This document shows, piece after piece, positions 1-63,418 of a stretch of 64,000 nucleotides of DNA. The translations under genes were made by a program, and so were the position numbers. The notes under the pieces were generated by a model. That model ran no database searches. It was not told the DNA's origin and saw nothing but the letters and a program-made list of their open reading frames with translations. The DNA is from Candidatus Altimarinota bacterium (GTDB taxonomy: Bacteria > Patescibacteriota > Gracilibacteria > UBA4473). The stretch spans positions 62,001-126,000 of the forward strand of contig JAIPIF010000001.1 of the NCBI GenBank assembly GCA_021734785.1, given 5' to 3'. The first letter of the stretch is position 1, and every line of letters begins with the position of its first letter.

Positions 1-2
1 GA

Positions 3-611
3 TTCCTCCAGGCATTTACCAAGATTTGGGATGACTTTGCCGAAGCCAACAACTGCGTCGAGTCGGCGTATGGGTACCGTTGGCGCAAACATTTCGGGCG
101 TGACCAGATTGGCGGCTTGGTCAAATTACTCGAAAAAGATCCCAGCTCCCGCCACGGCGTGATCCTCATGTGGGATCCGGGCGATGATGGGCTCGCCGAC
201 GGCATCCAAAAGAAAAATGTGCCCTGTCCGTACACGTTCACCGTGCAGATCATTGGGGGCAAGCTGCACCTGCATTTGGTCATTCGGTCCAATGACATGA
301 TGCTCGGCAATCCGCACGATGTGGCGGGGTTTGCCTTTCTGGCGCACGTTTTGGCCGAGCGGTTGGGAGTCAACCCGGGCTTTCTCACGGTCTCAATCTC
401 CAACGCACACATTTACGACATTCACTTCGAGCAGGCGGCAGAGATCGTGCAGCGAAAATGTGAGCACGACTCGATTCCATTCGAGTGCCCAAAAGACGCC
501 TTTCGTCGGGCGGAGGAGGGGGATGAGACGCTGGTGCAGGAGGTGTTTGAGCAGCTCCGGGCACAGTACCACCCCCAGGACTCCCTCGGGAAAATGGCGA
601 TTGTGTTGTGA
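3..611 (+). CDS. Thymidylate synthase family protein, possibly dCMP-specific (5' end outside window)
   Basis: The reading frame is open from base 3, so the N-terminus lies outside the window. The fold is recognisable from YGYRWR and DQIGGLV near the start, the SRH phosphate-binding region, the nucleophile Cys in VPCPYTF, RSND exactly 20 residues after that Cys, and AHIYDIH. These match the order and spacing of ThyA. The segment that reads LGLPFNIA in E. coli ThyA reads LGNPHDVA here, so the Asn that selects dUMP (E. coli N177) is Asp. In this family Asp at that site is typical of dCMP hydroxymethylases, and the engineered Asn-to-Asp change in L. casei ThyA gave a dCMP methylase. Catalysis on dCMP is therefore plausible but inferred. 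Downstream lie DHFR-like, dCTP-deaminase-family and dCMP deaminase genes. Family assignment is firm; substrate is uncertain. Confidence 0.85.
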   Translation, partial: FLQAFTKIWDDFAEANNCVESAYGYRWRKHFGRDQIGGLVKLLEKDPSSRHGVILMWDPGDDGLADGIQKKNVPCPYTFTVQIIGGKLHLHLVIRSNDMMLGNPHDVAGFAFLAHVLAERLGVNPGFLTVSISNAHIYDIHFEQAAEIVQRKCEHDSIPFECPKDAFRRAEEGDETLVQEVFEQLRAQYHPQDSLGKMAIVL

Positions 612-648
612 TTGACAAAAAATAAAAACGAAGCTTAAATTGTCTCCG

Positions 649-1476
649 ATGATTGAATATTCACCGGAAGATTTCGGGCTGGAATATCAAACACGAAAAG
701 GGGAAAAATTTAAAGCGCATCCACCAGATCCGGAAGGCCTCCCTCTTTCTGAATATCGAAAAAAAGAAAGTGAAAAAATAAACGACTTTTTAGATTCAGA
801 AAAAGAAGTTTGCGTCGTGGGCGGATTTTCTGCCACAGGAAAAACGTTCTTTTTTAAAAATCTGGCAAAAGAAAAGGGGTTTGCCTTTGTTGACTTACAG
901 GCCTTTGGATTTGGCACTGCCGAAAAATGGGCAGAAGAATCTATCAAAAAGGCAGAAGGCGGAACAATTTTTGACGAGGGGATGATGCTAGAAGAGGACA
1001 TTGAAGTGCAAAGAGAATTTAGAAAACTCTTTTCTTTTGCTCGGGGAAAAAAACATAAAATTTTTCTTCTTGGGGGTGGCACAGCTGCTACCACAGAAGG
1101 ACAAGAATCATTTCTTTTACAGCAAATCCCAGAGAACAGTTTGACAGAAACAGTTCCCTTTTTTTTAAAGATACTGAATGAGCAACAGATTATTGAGCTT
1201 TTGGAAGCAACGATTAAAAAATTCCAGGGGGAGCTGCGAGAGAGGCTGGAAAAAACACTTTCTTGCGAAACAAAAACAAAAGAGGCAATAAATCAGATCC
1301 ATCCTTACTTTAGAATAGCAAGAGTTATTAGTCGGTTGCCGTACTCAGACCGGGTCGAAGGAAGTCCGTTTGCGTCGGTAGGTCATTCTGAGGAAATTGG
1401 ATCGAAAGAAAGAGAAAGACAACGCCAAAAAAACCTAACAAAAGCGAGGGCCATTTTGCGCGGCGAAGCAAAATAG
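649..1476 (+). CDS. P-loop NTPase of unknown function, AT-rich
   Basis: The protein has about 275 residues, with a Walker A motif GFSATGKT near residue 60 that follows a short strand (VCVVGG), as in shikimate-kinase-like and AAA-type P-loop proteins. A possible Walker B region follows (GTIFDEG), then a hydrophobic strand KIFLLGGGTAA. The C-terminal third is charged and helical and ends in a basic tail. I do not recognise a specific family. ATG at 649 is preferred over the TTG at 640, and no good ribosome-binding site is visible. Base composition is much richer in A than its neighbours, which suggests horizontal acquisition between the thymidylate-synthase-family gene and the ferritin gene. 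Confidence 0.7.
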   Translation: MIEYSPEDFGLEYQTRKGEKFKAHPPDPEGLPLSEYRKKESEKINDFLDSEKEVCVVGGFSATGKTFFFKNLAKEKGFAFVDLQAFGFGTAEKWAEESIKKAEGGTIFDEGMMLEEDIEVQREFRKLFSFARGKKHKIFLLGGGTAATTEGQESFLLQQIPENSLTETVPFFLKILNEQQIIELLEATIKKFQGELRERLEKTLSCETKTKEAINQIHPYFRIARVISRLPYSDRVEGSPFASVGHSEEIGSKERERQRQKNLTKARAILRGEAK

Positions 1477-1521
1477 AAGGAATCGTTTTAATTGCATGCT
1501 CATATTAGACAAATCACATCA

Positions 1522-1663
1522 TGTCATTCCGGCTTGTCCGAGCCAAATTTCTTTAACGGCGGAATTTATTCCGCCGCCGAGGAATGAATTCCTCGGTTAA
1601 AAAAACGGGGAATCCACAACCATTTGCAGTCCGGGCACCGATTCCCGACAAGCGGGAATGACA
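1522..1663. repeat. 142-bp REP/MITE-like element with imperfect terminal inverted repeats
   Basis: The ends TGTCATTCCGGCTTGTC and GACAAGCGGGAATGACA are inverted repeats with one mismatch. Inside are two adjacent 20-bp palindromes: 1557-1576 (arms CGGCGGAAT / ATTCCGCCG) and 1577-1596 (arms CCGAGGAA / TTCCTCGG). No coding capacity is evident. This is the structure of a non-autonomous palindromic element (REP/BIME or MITE). It fills the gap between the AT-rich P-loop gene and mbfA, whose stop codon lies about 100 bases downstream. Confidence 0.75.
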
Positions 1664-1768
1664 GGAGGTGTTTTTTCTGGAATTTCGAAAAACTCCCTCC
1701 TTTTGCCCCGCAAAACGACCGAAGGACGCCAATCTTATTCCCAGCAAGAAGAGCGACCACCTCCACAA

Positions 1769-2683
1769 TCACACCTCAATCCCCAATCCCAGCCGCACGA
1801 TCACGCCGATTCCAAACGACAGCGCGGCCACGCCCAGACTGATCAGGGCCATTTCGCCAAACCGCTTCCAGAAGGACTCGGCCTTGGCCACAGAAATGTA
1901 AAAATTGAATCCCGCGATGACCAGAATCACCACGGAGATCGTCCCCGCCAGGGCGTGCAAGTAGTGATCGAAGAGAAAAAACGGCAGCACCAGCAGGATC
2001 ACGGTGAGCAAGTATGCCACCCCGGTGTACAGCGCAGACTTCCCAGCCTCACGGCTTTTTTCGTTGCGTTTGGAGAGGTACTCGCTGGCCGCCATCGAAA
2101 AACTCGCCGCGATCCCGGTGATCAGCCCGGCGAGGGCCACCAGGCGGGTGTCTTGCAGCGCAAAAGAGAGTCCTGCCAGCGCCCCGGTGAGCTCCACCAG
2201 CGCATCGTTGAGCCCCAAGACGACGGACCCCACGTACTCCAGCTGTTTTTCATTCAGGAGCTTGATGAGTTCTTTTTCGTGCCGTTGTTCGTCCTCGATT
2301 ACCTGTTTCGTCTCTGGGAAATGGGGCAACAGGACTTCGTAATTTTTTTGTGCCTGCTCCTCTCCTCGCTCCATAAATCGCACGCCAAAGGTCAGGCCAA
2401 AAATACTCGCCACCCAGGACCAAAGCCAGACGCGCAGGCGACGTGGATGGAGAGTGCGCTGGGTGATTTCAGCCCAAATGCCGGCGTGTGCTCGTTCTTC
2501 AGCGGCGATTTTTTTCAAAAGCTGTCGATTGGCTGGTGTGCGAGCGAGTCGCGCCAGGCGTTCGTACACGGCGGCCTCGGTGAGCTCACTTCTTTGGGCG
2601 CGGAGCAGATATTTTCTGAGTTTTGGATCCAGCGCGCCGAGCGTTCGTTGGCGAGCTCGAAGGCGTTTTTGTCGTGGTGTCAT
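1769..2683 (-). CDS. mbfA: Membrane-bound ferritin (rubrerythrin-VIT1 fusion, MbfA/CCC1 family)
   Basis: The N-terminal half is a ferritin-like four-helix region with iron-ligand motifs SELTEAAVYERLA, AAEERAHAG and EDEQRHEKEL (Glu and ExxH pairs). The C-terminal half has the VIT1/CCC1 signature (VVLGLNDALVELTGALAGLSFAL, then the SMAASEYLSKRNE motif) and several transmembrane helices. Such fusions oxidise iron and export Fe/Mn across the inner membrane, which lowers peroxide toxicity. The open frame continues upstream to a TTG at 2719. I chose ATG 2683 because TACGAT lies exactly 7 bases before it and TTGCGA 17 bases before that, the leaderless layout seen repeatedly in this window. It is divergent from the DHFR-like gene, and its -35 overlaps that gene's -35. 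Confidence 0.88.
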   Translation of the reverse strand: MTPRQKRLRARQRTLGALDPKLRKYLLRAQRSELTEAAVYERLARLARTPANRQLLKKIAAEERAHAGIWAEITQRTLHPRRLRVWLWSWVASIFGLTFGVRFMERGEEQAQKNYEVLLPHFPETKQVIEDEQRHEKELIKLLNEKQLEYVGSVVLGLNDALVELTGALAGLSFALQDTRLVALAGLITGIAASFSMAASEYLSKRNEKSREAGKSALYTGVAYLLTVILLVLPFFLFDHYLHALAGTISVVILVIAGFNFYISVAKAESFWKRFGEMALISLGVAALSFGIGVIVRLGLGIEV

Positions 2684-2690
2684 CGCCCAG

Positions 2691-2741
2691 ATCGTACGCG
2701 CTGCAAAAATTTTTCGCAAATTTTCTCAAAATCGGTACAGT
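2691..2741. promoter_or_regulatory. Divergent leaderless promoters sharing one -35 region (mbfA / DHFR-like gene)
   Basis: Minus strand: TTGCGA (2719-2714), 17-bp spacer, TACGAT (2696-2691), 7 bases, ATG of mbfA. Plus strand: TTCGCA (2713-2718), 17-bp spacer, TACAGT (2736-2741), 7 bases, ATG at 2749. The two -35 boxes overlap in the near-palindrome TTTCGCAAA, so RNA polymerase probably cannot occupy both promoters at once. Promoter calls are by eye. Confidence 0.55.
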
Positions 2742-2748
2742 GCCGATG

Positions 2749-3255
2749 ATGAAGTTGACCCTGCTGATGGCGCAGACGCTGGACGGGCGCACGGCCAAGT
2801 CCGCCGACCATTTTCCCGACTGGACGGAGCCCGCTGACAAGAAGCTTTTTATGACCCGGACCAAGGAATCGGGCGTGATGATTTTTGGGCGGACGACCTT
2901 CGAAACCCTGCCGGGGGTTTTGCCGGGGAGGCTCACGGTCGTCCTTTCTCGAAATGCCGGAGAATGGGAGGCGCGGGAAGAAAATCTCGTTTTCACTTCG
3001 CTGAAGCCGGCGGAACTTCTCAAAAAATTAGAATCGCTTGGCTTTGAAAACCCTATTTTGGCAGGAGGAGCCACGGTCAACACGCTCTTTGCCCAGGAAA
3101 ACCTGATCGATGAAATCCTGGTGACCGTTTCCCCTAAAATTTTTGGAGACGGACTGGGCCTCTTCGCCCCGGAAATTTCACTGGATTTGCAGTTGGAAAA
3201 GATGGAAAAAATCGGGGAGCAGACACTCGCCCTTCTTTACACTGTTAAAAAATGA
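2749..3255 (+). CDS. Dihydrofolate-reductase-fold protein (RibD C-terminal / DHFR-like)
   Basis: About 168 residues with the DHFR/RibD_C pattern: MAQTLDGRTA at the N-terminus, a phosphate-binding segment MIFGRTTFETLP, LPGRLTVVLSR, and a second nucleotide-binding strand NPILAGGATVNTLF followed by DEILVTVSPKIFG. These NADPH-dependent reductases act either on riboflavin precursors or as dihydrofolate reductases. No deaminase domain of RibD is attached, and the gene heads a deoxypyrimidine operon that overlaps the next gene by 4 bases. Regeneration of tetrahydrofolate for the nearby thymidylate-synthase-family enzyme is therefore the more attractive role, as inference. ATG 2749, not 2746, fits the 7-base distance from TACAGT. 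Confidence 0.78.
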   Translation: MKLTLLMAQTLDGRTAKSADHFPDWTEPADKKLFMTRTKESGVMIFGRTTFETLPGVLPGRLTVVLSRNAGEWEAREENLVFTSLKPAELLKKLESLGFENPILAGGATVNTLFAQENLIDEILVTVSPKIFGDGLGLFAPEISLDLQLEKMEKIGEQTLALLYTVKK

Positions 3256-3905
3256 TCCTCACTCGTCACGACATCGCGGCACTTTTGTCCTCTGGGAAGC
3301 TAGAATTCTCTCCCGCACTGGATCAGTGGCAAAACCAACCGCACGCGGTGGATTTGCGACTGGGGACCGTGTTTTATTTGCCGAAAATCTGGAAACTTTC
3401 AGCCGCTGGGCGAGAAGTTTTGAACGTCGACGTGACGCAGCAGTGTGGTGATAATTTCGAAAAAATTGAACTGAAGCCGGGGCAATTTTTCGAGCTTGCT
3501 CCCGGGGAGTCGATCATCGCCTCGACACTGGAAAAAATTTCCCTCCGAGCCGATGACCTGATGGGCGTGCTGTACCCGCGGAGTTCGATCAATCGGCGGG
3601 GGCTGTCTGTGGACCTGACGGGCATCGTGGACGCTCACTACTCAGGGCACCTGATGATCCCGATTCACAATCGCACCTCCAGCCAGATCATCCGGATTTA
3701 TCCCGGCGAGCGCATCTGCCAGGTGGTGTTTCAGCGACTTGCAAGTGGGTTGCAAAAAGAAGACGCCCTCAGGCACGGAGTGAGTGTTGCAAAGTACGAG
3801 GGAGCATCTGCCGCCGAGCTCTCGTCCAAAAAAGACGCCGACAAAGAAATGTCTCTGCTGCGATCGGGGGACCTGGACGCGCTCAAAAAACACCCGTACG
3901 CATGA
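3252..3905 (+). CDS. dCTP deaminase/dUTPase superfamily protein lacking the deaminase Glu
   Basis: Of 217 residues, HAVDLRLGTVFYL and YPRSSINRRGL are the family's trimer and triphosphate-binding motifs, and the length fits dCTP deaminases better than short dUTPases. In the active-site segment, E. coli Dcd has a catalytic Glu after the SG pair (WSGCIVLEF). Here the aligned stretch is YSGHLMIPIHN, which resembles dUTPase (YQGQLMISVWN), and the Asp of GIVDAHYSG is kept as in dUTPases. Loss of the Glu predicts dUTP hydrolysis to dUMP, or an altered activity, rather than dCTP deamination. The gene overlaps the DHFR-like gene upstream and the dCMP deaminase downstream by 4 bases each, so all three are probably one transcript. 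The C-terminal 40 residues are charged and unassigned. Confidence 0.8.
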   Translation: MILTRHDIAALLSSGKLEFSPALDQWQNQPHAVDLRLGTVFYLPKIWKLSAAGREVLNVDVTQQCGDNFEKIELKPGQFFELAPGESIIASTLEKISLRADDLMGVLYPRSSINRRGLSVDLTGIVDAHYSGHLMIPIHNRTSSQIIRIYPGERICQVVFQRLASGLQKEDALRHGVSVAKYEGASAAELSSKKDADKEMSLLRSGDLDALKKHPYA

Positions 3906-4366
3906 GTGCAAAAGACTTGCAAAATGTGCCGTTTTTGCCGGATGGGAGAACGATCCAGTTTTTAGACGAGGAGAATGAATTTCTTACCGCCGCACGAGAG
4001 GCCGCCGAAAAACATGCTTCCGGCGCGCTTCAGCAGACAGGGGCGGTGGTGGTGCGCGAGGGGAAAGTTTTGGGCAAAGGTGCCAATACCTCGGAGTACC
4101 ACGCCAAACACGGCTGTCGTCGCAAAGAACAAAACATTCCCACCGGTGAGCAGTACGAGCTCTGTCCTGGCTGTGACCCACGGACGCATGCGGAGCAGAT
4201 GGCGCTTGCGGATGCTATTTCAAACGGACACGATCCTGCTGGGGCGGATCTGTACCTCTGGGGGCACTGGTGGTGCTGCCAGAGCTGCTGGGAGGCCATG
4301 ATTGCCGCGGGGATCAATCGGGTGTTTTTGGTGTCTGGTGCGAAGCAGAAATTTGTTCCGGCGTGA
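3902..4366 (+). CDS. dCMP (deoxycytidylate) deaminase family zinc enzyme
   Basis: 154 residues with the zinc signature of the cytidine/dCMP deaminase superfamily: HAEQMAL (His ligand and catalytic Glu) and WCCQSCW (two Cys ligands; the usual Pro before the first Cys is Cys). A substrate-side motif CRRKEQNIPTGEQYELC matches dCMP deaminases rather than tRNA adenosine deaminases. It would convert dCMP to dUMP. T4-type enzymes also accept 5-methyl- and 5-hydroxymethyl-dCMP, which matters given the Asp-containing thymidylate-synthase-family protein upstream. The ATG overlaps the preceding stop (ATGA). Its 3' end overlaps the end of a convergent small gene. Confidence 0.85.
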   Translation: MSAKDLQNVPFLPDGRTIQFLDEENEFLTAAREAAEKHASGALQQTGAVVVREGKVLGKGANTSEYHAKHGCRRKEQNIPTGEQYELCPGCDPRTHAEQMALADAISNGHDPAGADLYLWGHWWCCQSCWEAMIAAGINRVFLVSGAKQKFVPA

Positions 4367-40575: not shown

Positions 40576-41550
40576 CTATTTATTTAAATTCTCTAAAAGC
40601 ATTTTAAATCCAGCGGTATTTACAAAATAATTTTTAGGATTGTCTTTTAGTGCCTTTTTTATAGCACTAAATTGGTTTAATATTTTCCCCTTTTTTAAAT
40701 ATTTTTTTTGTGTAAAAAGATTAAAATAAATGCCATCTAAAAAAGAAAGATAATAAACCATTGAATTTTTTTCTTTAGAACGAATAAAAGATATAATCTC
40801 GCTCATTTGTTTATCCTGTCCTCCACCAGCTTCTTTCATGTGTTTGTGTTCAACAATAAAAATTAAATCTTTGTGCCGAATAAGAAAATCAGGAAATTTG
40901 TTTTCTTTTTGCTCTGACCAAGCAAACGCAATTTTTTCTTTTTCTAATAATTGTTTGAAAAGTTTTTTCCCTTTTTTATCCGCTTCGATATATTTTTTTC
41001 TTCCTTTTGAAATAAATGTTTCAAGAGGTTCAGTGTTGGCATTTTTATAACCAAAAGTATCTAAGATTTTTGCTACTTTTTTTCCTCCCAAATTACCACT
41101 TTCTTTATGTGCTTTTGCATCTTTTCCAACTTGCAAAGTTGTGGGAGAATATCCGTAAGATAGATAGAGCGTATGTCTCATTTCTAAATATTTTTTAACG
41201 ATTTTTTCAATGATTTTTATCTTGTCTTCCTCTGTCATTTTTTTAAAAAGGCTGTAAGAGATATCAACAACTGGCCAAAAAGACACAAACTCAGAATAAT
41301 TTATATTCTTGGTTTTTATAATTTCCAATATCTTTTTTAGCGCCTTATTTGCTAACTTCTTTTCATCTTTTTTAATAGAAAAATTGTAGGTAGCAATGCA
41401 CTCCAAGAGTTCAAGGTTTTTTTGCATTAGAGTCGTTCTTTCTTGAGGATCTTTGGCTATTAATAAATTTCCTGCTTTTAAGTAGAACTCATCAATAATG
41501 GGTTCAGCATTTTGGAGTGAAAATTCAAGCAGCTTGATATTGTTTTTCAT
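40576..41550 (-). CDS. Probable type II restriction endonuclease, AT-rich
   Basis: 324 residues, Lys- and Ile-rich, far more AT-rich than the flanking genes. The C-terminal half has a PD-(D/E)XK-like core: FPDFLIRHKDLIFIVEHKHMKE (Asp, then Glu-x-Lys). The N-terminal half is helical without a recognised domain. It overlaps the adenine methyltransferase gene by 26 bases, the usual arrangement of restriction partners. Recognition sequence unknown. Confidence 0.75.
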   Translation of the reverse strand: MKNNIKLLEFSLQNAEPIIDEFYLKAGNLLIAKDPQERTTLMQKNLELLECIATYNFSIKKDEKKLANKALKKILEIIKTKNINYSEFVSFWPVVDISYSLFKKMTEEDKIKIIEKIVKKYLEMRHTLYLSYGYSPTTLQVGKDAKAHKESGNLGGKKVAKILDTFGYKNANTEPLETFISKGRKKYIEADKKGKKLFKQLLEKEKIAFAWSEQKENKFPDFLIRHKDLIFIVEHKHMKEAGGGQDKQMSEIISFIRSKEKNSMVYYLSFLDGIYFNLFTQKKYLKKGKILNQFSAIKKALKDNPKNYFVNTAGFKMLLENLNK

Positions 41551-42562
41551 ATGAATTTTTTAAGGGGAAAAGAGTTGGTGTTAAACTTCCTTCAGTGAGT
41601 TCGTATGCGTCTTCTAAAACGGCTCTTGCTGTAAGATAATCAAGCCTCCTCCTTCGCGTCCCATCTTTTTTATTTCCCTTAAAGGGGGAGAGCAAAATAT
41701 CATGGCATTCTTCCCGAAAAGAAAAAAGAATTTGGTTACTAAAGTTGATTATCTGACCGATATTCTCCTCTTGTGCAACTATTTTAATTGTGGTTATGAG
41801 TCTAGAGCTAAATTTTATCTTTGAAAGATCGTAGTTTATTTCTTCAGGTTTCATAAAAGACACAGGGGAAAGGGGATTTGTTGTATCCACAGCCCTCAGG
41901 GCGATTTGTCCATCGGGAGCGTTGAATTGTATATTGATATTATTTTTGGGAATTTTTCGCATCTGCTCAAAGGATTGTAGCGTCCCTAGAAAAATATTAT
42001 TTTTATATATTTTTACTTCATCTAACGATTTATTTTTATTATCAAAACAAATAACACAAACCGGAGTATCTGTGTCGCTAAACAATGAGTCTTCAATAAT
42101 AGTTATACTTACTAGTCTATTTTTAGGAAAGGTAGAATTTATAAATGTTTCTGGAACGATCATTACTCCGTAGTCATTTGCTAAGCATTTTTCAATAGCC
42201 AATTGATAGAGATCACTGTATCTGCATTTATTAAAATACTTTTGTACTTGATTAAAAATTCCCTTTCGCTTGGCACTATAATTTGTTAAATAGGGGGGAT
42301 TTGTTAGAACAACCGAATCCTTTATTTTTGGAACATGAAGAAGACTATCATTTTTTTTCCATTTTAAAGATTCATCAATGTCGCATCCAAGGAGTCGAGA
42401 AAAGCCAATCGTTCTTGCGACTTCTAGTAAATCTCCTTTTCCCGCAAAGGGATCAAATATTACTTTGGGTTGAATTGATTTTATAAATTCTAAAACATGA
42501 GGTTGCAGCCAAAAATTTTTCCTTGTAAAAAATTGTCCAAAAATTTTTTTTTGCAGATCCAT
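41525..42562 (-). CDS. DNA adenine N6-methyltransferase of a type II restriction-modification system
   Basis: 345 residues: SAM motif I in VIFDPFAGKGDLLE, an acidic strand GCDIDESLKW (motif II), catalytic motif IV VLTNPPYLTNY, then a long C-terminal target-recognition region. Motif order I then IV fits the gamma-type N6-adenine enzymes. It protects host DNA from the overlapping endonuclease. AT-rich; inserted between recF and der, probably by transfer. Confidence 0.88.
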   Translation of the reverse strand: MDLQKKIFGQFFTRKNFWLQPHVLEFIKSIQPKVIFDPFAGKGDLLEVARTIGFSRLLGCDIDESLKWKKNDSLLHVPKIKDSVVLTNPPYLTNYSAKRKGIFNQVQKYFNKCRYSDLYQLAIEKCLANDYGVMIVPETFINSTFPKNRLVSITIIEDSLFSDTDTPVCVICFDNKNKSLDEVKIYKNNIFLGTLQSFEQMRKIPKNNINIQFNAPDGQIALRAVDTTNPLSPVSFMKPEEINYDLSKIKFSSRLITTIKIVAQEENIGQIINFSNQILFSFREECHDILLSPFKGNKKDGTRRRRLDYLTARAVLEDAYELTEGSLTPTLFPLKNSYEKQYQAA

Positions 42563-61399: not shown

Positions 61400-63418
61400 T
61401 TAGAAAAATACTTCCTCGCTTTCCACCCGCGCCTTGAGCCGCGGATATTTCTTGAGTTCCACATCTTCTTGGAGCACTTTTACCGCCCAGTCACGTGCCG
61501 ACTGCAGCATCTCGGCATCGCTGAGGGAGGCACATTTGAAATCCGGCATCCCGGACTGGCGCACCCCGTACAGCTCGCCCATGCCGCGCAGTTTCAAATC
61601 AATTTCTGCCAGCTTTTGCCCGGAATGATATTTTTCCATCGATCGCAGGCGTGTTTTTTGTGCATCATCTTTTCGATCCACCATGAGAAAACAATAGCTC
61701 TGCATTTCATTTCTCCCAATTCGCCCACGAAACTGGTGCAGCTGTGCCAGTCCAAACCGTTCGGCATTTTCAATCACCATTACTGTGGCGTGGGGGATGT
61801 CCACTCCAACCTCGATCACGCTCGTCGACACGAGGATGTCAAACTCCCTTGCCTGAAAGCGCTGCATGACGGCGTCTTTTTCTTTGGGCTTCATTTTTCC
61901 GTGGAGAAATTCGACCTTCCGATTTTGGAATCTCTCTCGAATCCGCTCAAACTCGGCACGGACATTTCGTGCCTCAACTTTGTCCGACTCATCGATCAGC
62001 GGACAGACCCAAAACACCTGCCGCTCCTTGGCCACCTGATCATCCAGAAAGACTTCCATTTTTTCGCGCGTTTTTGTATCGCCGATCACGCGGGTGACGA
62101 TTTGTTTCCGCCCCGGCGGCAATTCATCAATCACTGAAATATCCTGATCTCCGTAAATGGTGAGGGCCAGCGTGCGTGGAATCGGCGTGGCGGTCATGGC
62201 GACTGTGTGGCACTGGGTTTCCTGCAAAATAGCCCGTTGCTTTACCCCAAATCGGTGCTGCTCATCGATCACCGCGAGCCCGAGATTTGCAAACTCGGTA
62301 TCCTCGGTCAAAATTGCATGCGTGCCCACCAGCACATCGATTTCTCCGGCCCTGAGCGCGGATTTGATTTCCTCCTTTTTTTTGCCCGGGACCGATCCAG
62401 TCAGGAGTGCCACGTGCGCATCATCTCCAAAAAATTTCTTGGCCCCTGTGAAGTGCTGCTGCGCCAAAATTTCCGTCGGAGCCAGAAGCGCAACCTGGTT
62501 TCCGGCCCGCACCTGCACGAGCCCCGCCAGAAACGCGACGACGGTTTTGCCACTCCCCACATCGCCCTGTACCAGGCGGTGCGCGGGGCGGTCTTTTTCG
62601 AAATCCTTCAAAATATGCAACAAGACGCGTTTTTGTGCCTGGGTGAGCTCGAAGGGGAGTCGCTCGAAATCTTGCTTCACTTGTGCAGCATCAAAAGACA
62701 CCCGGTACTGATTTTTTGCCTGCTGCTCCCGCAAAAATTTTTCCTGCAGGGATCGCACCTGGACCTCAAACACTTCTTCAAAGGCGAGCCGCTTTCTCGC
62801 CGCCTCCCACTCGTCCCAGGATTTCGGCTTATGAATAGCTCGTACCGCTTCCGATTTTCCGATAAGATTTTCTGCTTCCAAAATTTCCGCCGGCAGGATC
62901 TCTCCAAATTCTTTGACCAGGGGGAGGAGCCCGACGATTTTTTCGCGTAGCCATTTGCTCGTAATGGGGGGGGACTCAGAGTAGACCGCTCGCAGGCCCC
63001 CCACGTGGACGGCTTTCTCTACATGGACTTCGGGGTTGGAGATCTGAATTTGACCATAATTTCGATCGACTTTGCCAACGAGAAAAACACGGGATTCATC
63101 TTTGAGGTTTCGCAGCAAGTACGGGATCTGAAACCACACGACTTCTACGGTCGCTCCATCGGCCAGTACCAGCGCGGCACGGCCGAGCGTTTTGCCGCGC
63201 GCTGTTTTTTCTCGGCGGAAATCACAGAGTGTTCCCACGAGCGTATTTTTTTCTCCTAATTTTACCGACGGAAAGTCTTCGATAATTTCTGTCGACTCAA
63301 CTTTTCGGGGAAAATATTCCAGCAAATCTTGGACGGTTTTTTTGTCCAGGGATTCAAGTTTCTTGAGGTGGGCACTGGTGGTTTTGAGGACGGATTTCAA
63401 CGGCAGAGACAGACTCAT
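61400..63418 (-). CDS. recG: RecG branch-migration helicase
   Basis: 672 residues from ATG 63418. An N-terminal wedge/OB region, Walker A GDVGSGKT, DEQHRFG (motif II, RecG hallmark), GKMKPKEKDAVMQRF, and the C-terminal TRG/helical hook region LRSMEKYHSG. It remodels stalled forks and Holliday junctions. The open frame goes to 63556; ATG 63418 matches family starts. Confidence 0.95.
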   Translation of the reverse strand: MSLSLPLKSVLKTTSAHLKKLESLDKKTVQDLLEYFPRKVESTEIIEDFPSVKLGEKNTLVGTLCDFRREKTARGKTLGRAALVLADGATVEVVWFQIPYLLRNLKDESRVFLVGKVDRNYGQIQISNPEVHVEKAVHVGGLRAVYSESPPITSKWLREKIVGLLPLVKEFGEILPAEILEAENLIGKSEAVRAIHKPKSWDEWEAARKRLAFEEVFEVQVRSLQEKFLREQQAKNQYRVSFDAAQVKQDFERLPFELTQAQKRVLLHILKDFEKDRPAHRLVQGDVGSGKTVVAFLAGLVQVRAGNQVALLAPTEILAQQHFTGAKKFFGDDAHVALLTGSVPGKKKEEIKSALRAGEIDVLVGTHAILTEDTEFANLGLAVIDEQHRFGVKQRAILQETQCHTVAMTATPIPRTLALTIYGDQDISVIDELPPGRKQIVTRVIGDTKTREKMEVFLDDQVAKERQVFWVCPLIDESDKVEARNVRAEFERIRERFQNRKVEFLHGKMKPKEKDAVMQRFQAREFDILVSTSVIEVGVDIPHATVMVIENAERFGLAQLHQFRGRIGRNEMQSYCFLMVDRKDDAQKTRLRSMEKYHSGQKLAEIDLKLRGMGELYGVRQSGMPDFKCASLSDAEMLQSARDWAVKVLQEDVELKKYPRLKARVESEEVFF

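What the first reader, a model, noticed from the sequence alone, without database searches (positions are those of the whole stretch)
3..4366. Possible dCMP-first thymidylate route: Asp-containing thymidylate-synthase-family enzyme with dCMP deaminase and DHFR
Seen: the dUMP-selecting Asn of ThyA is Asp (LGNPHDVA); nearby are a DHFR-like enzyme and a dCMP deaminase of the type that can accept 5-substituted dCMP. Known: Asn-to-Asp in L. casei ThyA creates a dCMP methylase, and dCMP hydroxymethylases carry Asp here. Inference: the enzyme may methylate dCMP, with the deaminase then making dTMP; or it may make hydroxymethyl-dCMP for DNA modification or for a resident phage-derived pathway.
Basis: partly seen in the sequence, partly recalled or inferred. 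Interest (0 to 1): 0.75.

Follow-up and report, generated by a model that had tools for sequence, protein, structure and literature searches.

The report
Cytosine-first route to thymidylate in bacteria
A group of ultra-small bacteria appears to make the DNA letter T by first adding a methyl group to the C nucleotide and only then deaminating it, the reverse of the order in every well-studied cell, and this looks like their only way to make T.

Summary
The window cuts into a full-length 278-aa ThyA-family gene (contig 61775-62608; window 1-611) with Asp at E. coli Asn177 and Pro at His147. Across the GTDB-type family (Gracilibacteria-labelled Patescibacteria) it is chromosomal and single-copy: 19/20 genomes have it, 18 of those 19 have no other ThyA, and none of the 20 has ThyX. 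In a 286-genome phylum sample, 9 genomes carry this Asp-type enzyme. All 9 also carry an unusual GHWW-motif relative of dCMP deaminase (8 strong hits, 1 divergent), versus 0 of 277 others (Fisher 9e-15). Thymidine kinase is absent from 24 of 25 Asp-type genomes tested, and DHFR is present in all 13 tested. The enzyme groups with TSs of Xp12-like phages (100/100), and Xp12 is the one system with biochemically described dCMP methylation followed by deamination. Asn at T4 Asp145 and a retained C-terminal tail argue against a hydroxymethylase. Best reading: dCMP -> 5-methyl-dCMP -> dTMP is the only recognisable thymidylate route in these bacteria. The residue and co-occurrence data are shown; the catalysis is inferred, because nothing has been assayed. 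The phage precedent makes the chemistry known; its use as a core cellular pathway appears new in the literature I could search.

The parts
1..611 (+). Asp-type ThyA-family gene, C-terminal part (the gene begins 225 bases upstream of the window; contig 61775-62608 plus stop). Proposed dCMP methylase (5,10-methylene-THF dependent).
   Evidence: PF00303 E=6e-56 on the genome; full protein P0001; residues; tree
216..230 (+). N-V-P-C-P motif: Asn at the T4 dCMP-hydroxymethylase Asp145 position (216-218), catalytic Cys (225-227), Pro at E. coli His147 (228-230)
318..320 (+). Asp codon (GAT) at E. coli ThyA Asn177, the dUMP/dCMP selector
   Evidence: PMC8670742, PMC5175136
2746..3255 (+). DHFR of the RibD_C/DHFR_1 type, proposed to recycle the dihydrofolate made by the methylase
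   Evidence: RibD_C 2.4e-18, DHFR_1 4.8e-11; the only DHFR_1 hit in G000
3252..3905 (+). DCD/dUTPase-fold protein that lacks the dCTP-deaminase catalytic Glu (Pro in 34/34 relatives); possibly a dUTP or dCTP diphosphatase feeding or policing the pool
   Evidence: ATGA overlaps with both neighbours
3902..4366 (+). GHWW-type zinc deaminase, proposed 5-methyl-dCMP deaminase producing dTMP
   Evidence: PF00383 3.1e-13; family and phylum co-occurrence; model pLDDT 89.8, nearest solved structure human dCMP deaminase

Best explanation
The locus encodes a 'methylate first, deaminate second' thymidylate pathway. (1) The Asp177 ThyA-family enzyme transfers the one-carbon unit of 5,10-methylene-THF to C5 of dCMP and reduces it with the folate's own hydride, giving 5-methyl-dCMP and DHF. 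(2) The linked DHFR regenerates THF. (3) The GHWW-type deaminase converts 5-methyl-dCMP (or, as in phage Xp12, a more phosphorylated form) to dTMP (or dTTP). (4) The DCD/dUTPase-fold protein manages the dCTP/dUTP pool, perhaps supplying dCMP. In these Patescibacteria this is the only recognisable de novo dTMP route. Shown here: the residues, vertical conservation in the family, absence of ThyX and (but for one genome) of other ThyA, near-absence of thymidine kinase, near-perfect co-occurrence of methylase and deaminase, gene clustering, DHFR presence, and grouping with Xp12-like phage enzymes. Inferred: every catalytic step.
For: Asp177 invariant in 38/38 bacterial relatives and in six Xp12-like phage TSs; Asp here means a cytosine substrate (PMC8670742, PMC5175136). 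Position 147, the other marker of cytosine-type TS in PMC8670742, is also changed (Pro/Val for His). Asp-type bacterial and Xp12-like phage TSs group at 96/91 and 100/100, apart from Asn177 ThyA. Sole TS: single match in 18 of 19 carriers in the family, ThyX 0/20, ThyX 0/8 in a second check that includes further lineages. Thymidine kinase in only 1 of 25 above the cut-off. GHWW deaminase in 9/9 Asp-type versus 0/277 other genomes. DHFR in 13/13, of two different types, as expected if the reaction oxidises folate (PMC6400193). Asn at T4 Asp145, where D145N abolishes hydroxymethylation, and a retained C-terminal tail. Precedent: Xp12 dCMP methyltransferase and 5-methyl-dCTP deaminase.
Against: No biochemistry exists for any member. 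The natural Asp-type context also changes other pocket residues (Pro147, His/Asn205, His/Gln127), so mutants of E. coli or L. casei ThyA are an imperfect guide. The deaminase could make dUMP, as ordinary ones do. About half of sampled Patescibacteria show no ThyA-family hit at all with this query (146 of 286), so thymidylate import may be common in the phylum. One family member (G005) keeps an ordinary ThyA as well. The own genome is only 77% complete; the absence claims rest on relatives.
Confidence: 0.78

Rival explanations
1. Conventional order: the GHWW deaminase turns dCMP into dUMP and the Asp-type enzyme, re-tuned by compensating pocket changes (Pro147, Asn/His205), still methylates dUMP to dTMP.
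For: A dCMP deaminase feeding a TS is the ordinary Gram-positive arrangement (PMC12088426). No Asp-type member has been assayed. Several pocket residues beyond 177 differ from ThyA.
Against: Asp177 is invariant and grouped with enzymes of Xp12-like phages, where dCMP methylation was measured for Xp12. Asp protonates or orients cytosine N3 (PMC6400193). If dUMP were the substrate, Asn would be expected to return in some of 38 sequences. Ordinary-ThyA Patescibacteria never show the GHWW deaminase.
Confidence: 0.12
2. dCMP hydroxymethylase of the T4 kind, making 5-hydroxymethyl-dCMP for DNA modification; thymidine nucleotides are imported.
For: Asp177 is shared with T4 gp42; Ser or Thr at the T4 Ser94 position in 26 of 38. 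Import is plausible for epibionts.
Against: T4 Asp145, essential even against Asn (PMC6400193), is Asn in 38/38. The C-terminal tail that T4 gp42 lacks is present. DHFR is in all genomes tested, and hydroxymethylation does not oxidise folate. The gene is universal in the family with a dedicated deaminase, which would destroy the product.
Confidence: 0.05
3. The enzyme makes 5-methyl-dCMP mainly for incorporation into DNA (wholesale 5mC, as in phage Xp12), the deaminase only trims the pool, and dTMP is imported.
For: Xp12 itself has 5-methylcytosine in place of cytosine (PMC8543423, PMC7653180); thymidine kinase is absent here, so nucleotide import would be needed.
Against: Retained as the only TS across the family's genera with a deaminase and DHFR. 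Xp12 itself uses the same chemistry to make dTTP. Wholesale 5mC has no known precedent in a cell that I am aware of.
Confidence: 0.05

Closest known systems
Phage Xp12 thymidylate/5-methylcytosine pathway (dCMP methyltransferase, Kuo & Tu 1976, Feng 1978; 'a new thymidylate biosynthesis', Kuo, Chow & Lin 1982; 5-methyl-dCTP deaminase, Wang & Ehrlich 1982)
   Same: Asp177/Pro147 'NVPCP' TS-family enzyme, grouped in the tree with enzymes of Xp12's genus, next to a dCMP-deaminase-family gene and, in several, DHFR (PMC9206674)
   Different: Cellular, vertically inherited in its family and the only TS. The deaminase belongs to a different subfamily (GHWW; no phage match), a DCD-like gene is added, and the C-terminal TS tail is canonical in position. 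The Xp12 record itself was not in the collection, so genus-mates were used. The 1976-82 papers were read only through later citations.
T4 gp42 dCMP hydroxymethylase
   Same: TS fold, Cys nucleophile, Asp179 for cytosine
   Different: T4 has Asp145 and no C-terminal tail, and needs no DHFR; here Asn, tail kept, DHFR linked
ThyA (dUMP thymidylate synthase)
   Same: Fold and all catalytic residues; solved N229D L. casei ThyA with dCMP (1njc) is among the structural matches
   Different: Asn177->Asp, His147->Pro, Leu143->Asn, Arg127->His/Gln, Asp205->Asn/His
dCMP deaminase DCTD (human 2w4l, T4, S-TIM5)
   Same: Predicted fold, HxE...CxxC zinc site. DCTD is also reported active on 5-methyl-dCMP (PMC12088426)
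   Different: GHWW insertion with Pro of PCxxC replaced by Cys/Ala/Leu/Ser; aromatic of the allosteric G(Y/W)N(A/G) motif replaced (GAN in the window protein)

Membership tests
ThyA, dUMP-dependent thymidylate synthase | Catalytic Cys146, Glu58, Tyr94, Arg166, Asp169, His207, Tyr209 | tested here: met
   38/38
ThyA, dUMP-dependent thymidylate synthase | Asn177 (dUMP selection) and His147 | tested here: not met
   Asp 38/38; Pro 36, Val 2
Xp12-type dCMP methylase | Asp177 with Pro147/Asn143 'NVPCP' motif | tested here: met
   6/6 Xp12-like phage TSs and 36/38 bacterial ones share it; the other two have Asp177/Asn143 with Val147
Xp12-type dCMP methylase | Common ancestry apart from Asn177 ThyA | tested here: met
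   Bipartition 96/91 and 100/100 without T4 gp42; unrooted, with a long-branch warning
Xp12-type dCMP methylase | dCMP + CH2-THF -> 5-methyl-dCMP + DHF | not testable with these tools
   needs enzyme assay
T4-type dCMP hydroxymethylase | Asp (or Glu) three residues before the catalytic Cys | tested here: not met
   Asn 38/38; D145N is inactive in T4
T4-type dCMP hydroxymethylase | No C-terminal tail | tested here: not met
   Tail ending in a hydrophobic I-V/A-L motif kept
DCTD dCMP deaminase | HxE and PCxxC zinc motifs | tested here: inconclusive
   HxE and CxxC invariant, but the Pro is replaced and GHWW inserted
DCTD dCMP deaminase | Cytidine-deaminase fold closest to dCMP deaminases | tested here: met
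   Best Foldseek hit human dCMP deaminase, E 1.4e-5, TM about 0.5
DCD dCTP deaminase (window 3252-3905) | Catalytic Glu (E. coli Glu138) | tested here: not met

The most novel reading that the evidence does not exclude
A third cellular route to thymidylate beside ThyA and ThyX: an obligate, chromosomally encoded dCMP-first pathway (dCMP -> 5-methyl-dCMP -> dTMP) used by whole lineages of Patescibacteria. It has a co-evolved deaminase subfamily and, in Uhrbacteria, a deaminase fused to a possibly nucleotide-clearing (PF05014) domain. Genes were exchanged with phages.
Probability: 0.72. Interest if true: 0.92.

Novelty: new variant of a known kind. Interest (0 to 1): 0.83.

Why it matters
Thymidylate synthesis is treated as having two solutions in cells, both methylating dUMP. 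A cell whose only recognisable route methylates dCMP would be a third. It would change how thymidylate synthase annotations are read in the Patescibacterial genomes that carry this gene. It would move a 1982 phage curiosity (Xp12) into core bacterial metabolism. It also predicts free 5-methyl-dCMP in living cells, with possible 5mC in DNA. The pathway is directly testable with two purified proteins.

Tried and rejected
Prophage origin of this locus: rejected (core-gene neighbours; 19/20 family genomes). Second TS or ThyX hidden in the genome: searched, none in G000; only G005 in the family has an extra ordinary ThyA (Asn177/His147). Salvage by thymidine kinase: 1 of 25 genomes above the cut-off. 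Hydroxymethylase: rejected on Asn143, tail and DHFR. Window 3252-3905 as a dCTP deaminase making dUTP: rejected, catalytic Glu is Pro. A phage source for the GHWW deaminase: no match in 50,697 phage records. Close viral homologues of the window TS by single-protein search: none; with the alignment, two phage contigs carry Asp-type TSs inside the bacterial group. Xp12 record MT664984 was not in the collection. Two older papers were not held. A Thiotrichaceae contig with the cluster (L057, 3.2 kb) is probably misbinned Patescibacterial DNA.
Full report
WHAT IS THERE. The window begins inside a ThyA-family gene. From the parent contig (window = G000:C1:62001-126000) the intact gene is 61775-62608 plus stop, 278 aa from the likely Met (P0001, 281 aa, starts three codons earlier). 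It scores well with PF00303 (6e-56) but far below NCBIfam's curated ThyA cut-offs (94.6 bits against 327 for the part in the window). Downstream on the same strand are a RibD_C/DHFR_1-type DHFR (2746-3255), a DCD/dUTPase-fold protein (3252-3905) and a CMP/dCMP-type zinc deaminase (3902-4366). The last three overlap by ATGA stop/start junctions, as in a translationally coupled operon. In some relatives the four genes are contiguous (for example L041: TS 1434-2354, DHFR 2385-2897, DCD-like 2843-3544, deaminase 3541-4065; also L032). In the window other genes lie between TS and DHFR.

RESIDUES. Asp177 is invariant in 38/38 bacterial relatives, Asn143 in 38/38, Pro147 in 36/38 (Val in G027 and G059). 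Ordinary ThyA from 21 other Patescibacteria, G005's second ThyA and E. coli all have Asn177 and His147. The literature makes position 177 the dUMP/dCMP selector, and an independent association study ranks exactly 177 and 147 as the two positions that separate TSs of cytosine-modified contigs from ordinary ones (PMC8670742; PMC5175136).

DISTRIBUTION. In the window's family 19 of 20 genomes carry the Asp-type gene (67-83% identity to the window protein, 14 of 15 genera including the window's own), including 13 of 13 high-quality genomes. It is the only PF00303 hit in 18 of those 19; G005 has an extra ordinary ThyA. ThyX is absent from all 20. In an even sample of 286 Patescibacteria the Asp type forms a clean class (over 300 bits; everything else under 140): 9 genomes from 7 families, each with no ordinary-ThyA second hit (G006's second match is a fragment just downstream). 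ThyX was absent in the eight of these other than the window genome. Titles of the close loci found in the GTDB-based collection name mostly Gracilibacteria, Uhrbacteria, Kaiserbacteria and unspecified Parcubacteria/Patescibacteria. Thymidine kinase exceeds the cut-off in only 1 of 25 Asp-type genomes (G116).

THE DEAMINASE TRAVELS WITH IT. The window-type deaminase is in 19/20 family genomes, the same 19 that have the TS. In the 286-genome sample it scores over 130 bits in 8 of the 9 Asp-type genomes and in none of the 277 others, whose best is 44 bits (Fisher 9e-15; phylogenetic non-independence is not corrected). The ninth, G027, has a divergent copy with the same GHWW signature on the same contig. 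The signature GH[WF]W-x-C-x-x-C replaces the usual PCxxC; the fetched deaminase-like loci of genomes without the Asp type lack GHWW, and many show a PCxxC motif. The HxE and CxxC zinc ligands are intact. The aromatic of the allosteric G(Y/W)N(A/G) motif described for DCTDs (PMC12088426) is Ala in the window protein. AlphaFold2 gives a confident model (pLDDT 89.8) whose best solved match is human dCMP deaminase. In G116, G251, G283 and G059 the deaminase lies within about 1.5 kb of the TS. Families f48 and f68 contain both Asp-type and lower-identity TSs in different genera; the strong deaminase hit follows the Asp type each time. (Residue 177 of the other f48/f68 TSs was not read individually.)

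METHYLASE RATHER THAN HYDROXYMETHYLASE. T4 dCMP hydroxymethylase needs Asp145, three residues before the Cys; even D145N makes no 5hm-dCMP, and the enzyme lacks the C-terminal tail that seals the TS site for hydride transfer (PMC6400193). The Asp-type enzymes have Asn there in 38/38 and keep the tail. Methylation oxidises the folate and needs DHFR; hydroxymethylation does not (same paper). DHFR is present in 13/13 Asp-type genomes tested, with low-scoring RibD_C-like members in the window's family and high-scoring classical DHFR_1 in G116, G251, G283, G059 and G027. In G116 and G251 the classical gene also lies in the cluster, so two different DHFR types are associated with this TS.

ANCESTRY. 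A maximum-likelihood tree of 71 sequences puts the bacterial Asp-type enzymes on one side of a branch (86/80) and joins them to TSs of Xp12-like phages (96/91). Without the very long T4 gp42 branch the join is 100/100. The program warns of long branches for the phage group. One of the phages, DoCa10, belongs to Xp12's genus Bosavirus (PMC11946847), and a close relative, AXL1, has TS, dCMP deaminase and DHFR side by side (PMC9206674). Mallos fetched here has all three, and the other Asp-type phages have at least TS plus deaminase. Xp12 is the one system where dCMP methylation with folate and deamination of the 5-methyl product to dTTP were reported (reviewed in PMC8543423 and PMC12088426; originals cited there, not read). 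Two IMG/VR contigs with phage genes carry Asp-type TSs nested among the bacterial ones, so genes have moved between phages and these bacteria. The direction is not settled.

THE DCD-LIKE GENE. Asp-type genomes usually hold an ordinary dUTPase plus this second dUTPase-fold protein: 9 of 11 show both; G251 and G059 show only the cluster-linked one. It keeps the Ser111, Arg115 and Asp128 equivalents of DCD in most, but has Pro in 34/34 where dCTP deaminase has its catalytic Glu. It is therefore unlikely to make dUTP from dCTP. A dUTP- or dCTP-diphosphatase role, the latter supplying dCMP, is a guess. In Uhrbacteria the deaminase is fused to a PF05014 nucleoside-deoxyribosyltransferase-like domain (scored for L049), and one G116 copy to a P-loop, kinase-like domain. 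Both would suit a dedicated nucleotide pathway, for instance clearing dead-end dUMP or phosphorylating dTMP. This is inference.

MECHANISM AND CONFIDENCE. dCMP + CH2-THF -> 5-methyl-dCMP + DHF (Asp-type TS); DHF -> THF (DHFR); 5-methyl-dCMP -> dTMP (GHWW deaminase). The genomic pattern is shown; the catalytic steps are inferred. The strongest rival is the ordinary order with a re-tuned TS acting on dUMP. It explains the deaminase, but not the invariant Asp, the shared NVPCP motif with Xp12-like enzymes, or the exclusive GHWW deaminase.

NOVELTY. Searches of the open-access library found no paper linking Patescibacteria or Gracilibacteria with a dCMP-based thymidylate route. A 2025 study treats a Patescibacterial thyA as a conventional dTMP synthase (PMC12455944). 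Subscription papers and preprints were not searchable. The chemistry is known from one phage; its use as a core cellular route appears new.

Noticed in passing
window 40576-42562 (-): Low-GC (38%) island between a recF-like gene and a der-like GTPase gene: an Eco57I-type (NPPY) DNA methyltransferase and a weakly Tsp45I-like restriction endonuclease, probably a horizontally acquired type II restriction-modification pair.
   Followed up: partly
window 640-1476 (+): 278-aa P-loop-like protein right after the TS gene with no Pfam, NCBIfam or PHROGs match; not seen next to TS in relatives.
   Followed up: partly
window 1769-2719 (-): Rubrerythrin/ferritin-like domain fused to a VIT1 iron-transporter domain; also found beside the TS cluster in relatives (L026, L027, L028, L031).
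   Followed up: partly
L049:9438-10370, L045:9925-10827, L054:9414-10391 (Uhrbacteria): GHWW deaminase followed in the same frame by a nucleoside 2-deoxyribosyltransferase/DNPH1-like region (PF05014 hit scored for L049), possibly clearing unwanted deoxynucleoside monophosphates.
   Followed up: partly
L145:1745-2815 (G116): Second, tandem GHWW deaminase fused to a P-loop kinase-like domain (AAA_18/AAA_17 weak), candidate deoxynucleotide kinase fusion; G116 is also the only Asp-type genome with a clear thymidine kinase.
   Followed up: partly
L163 (IMG/VR 3300031250_000005): Phage contig with Asp-type TS near an ordinary PCxxC dCMP deaminase, dUTPase, thymidylate-kinase-like and MazG-like genes: possibly a 5-methylcytosine phage, perhaps of Patescibacteria.
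   Followed up: partly
L057 (JALVRY010000417.1): 3.2-kb contig binned as Thiotrichaceae carrying the whole TS-DHFR-deaminase-DCD-like cluster; probably misbinned Patescibacterial DNA.
   Followed up: no
L023/L025 (G006:C14:33750-33833): A 28-residue duplicate of the TS C-terminal tail lies just downstream of the intact gene in the sister genome.
   Followed up: no
window 1640-1662: Single copy of a palindrome-like repeat GTCATTCCCGCTTGTCGGGAATC in an intergenic stretch.
   Followed up: partly
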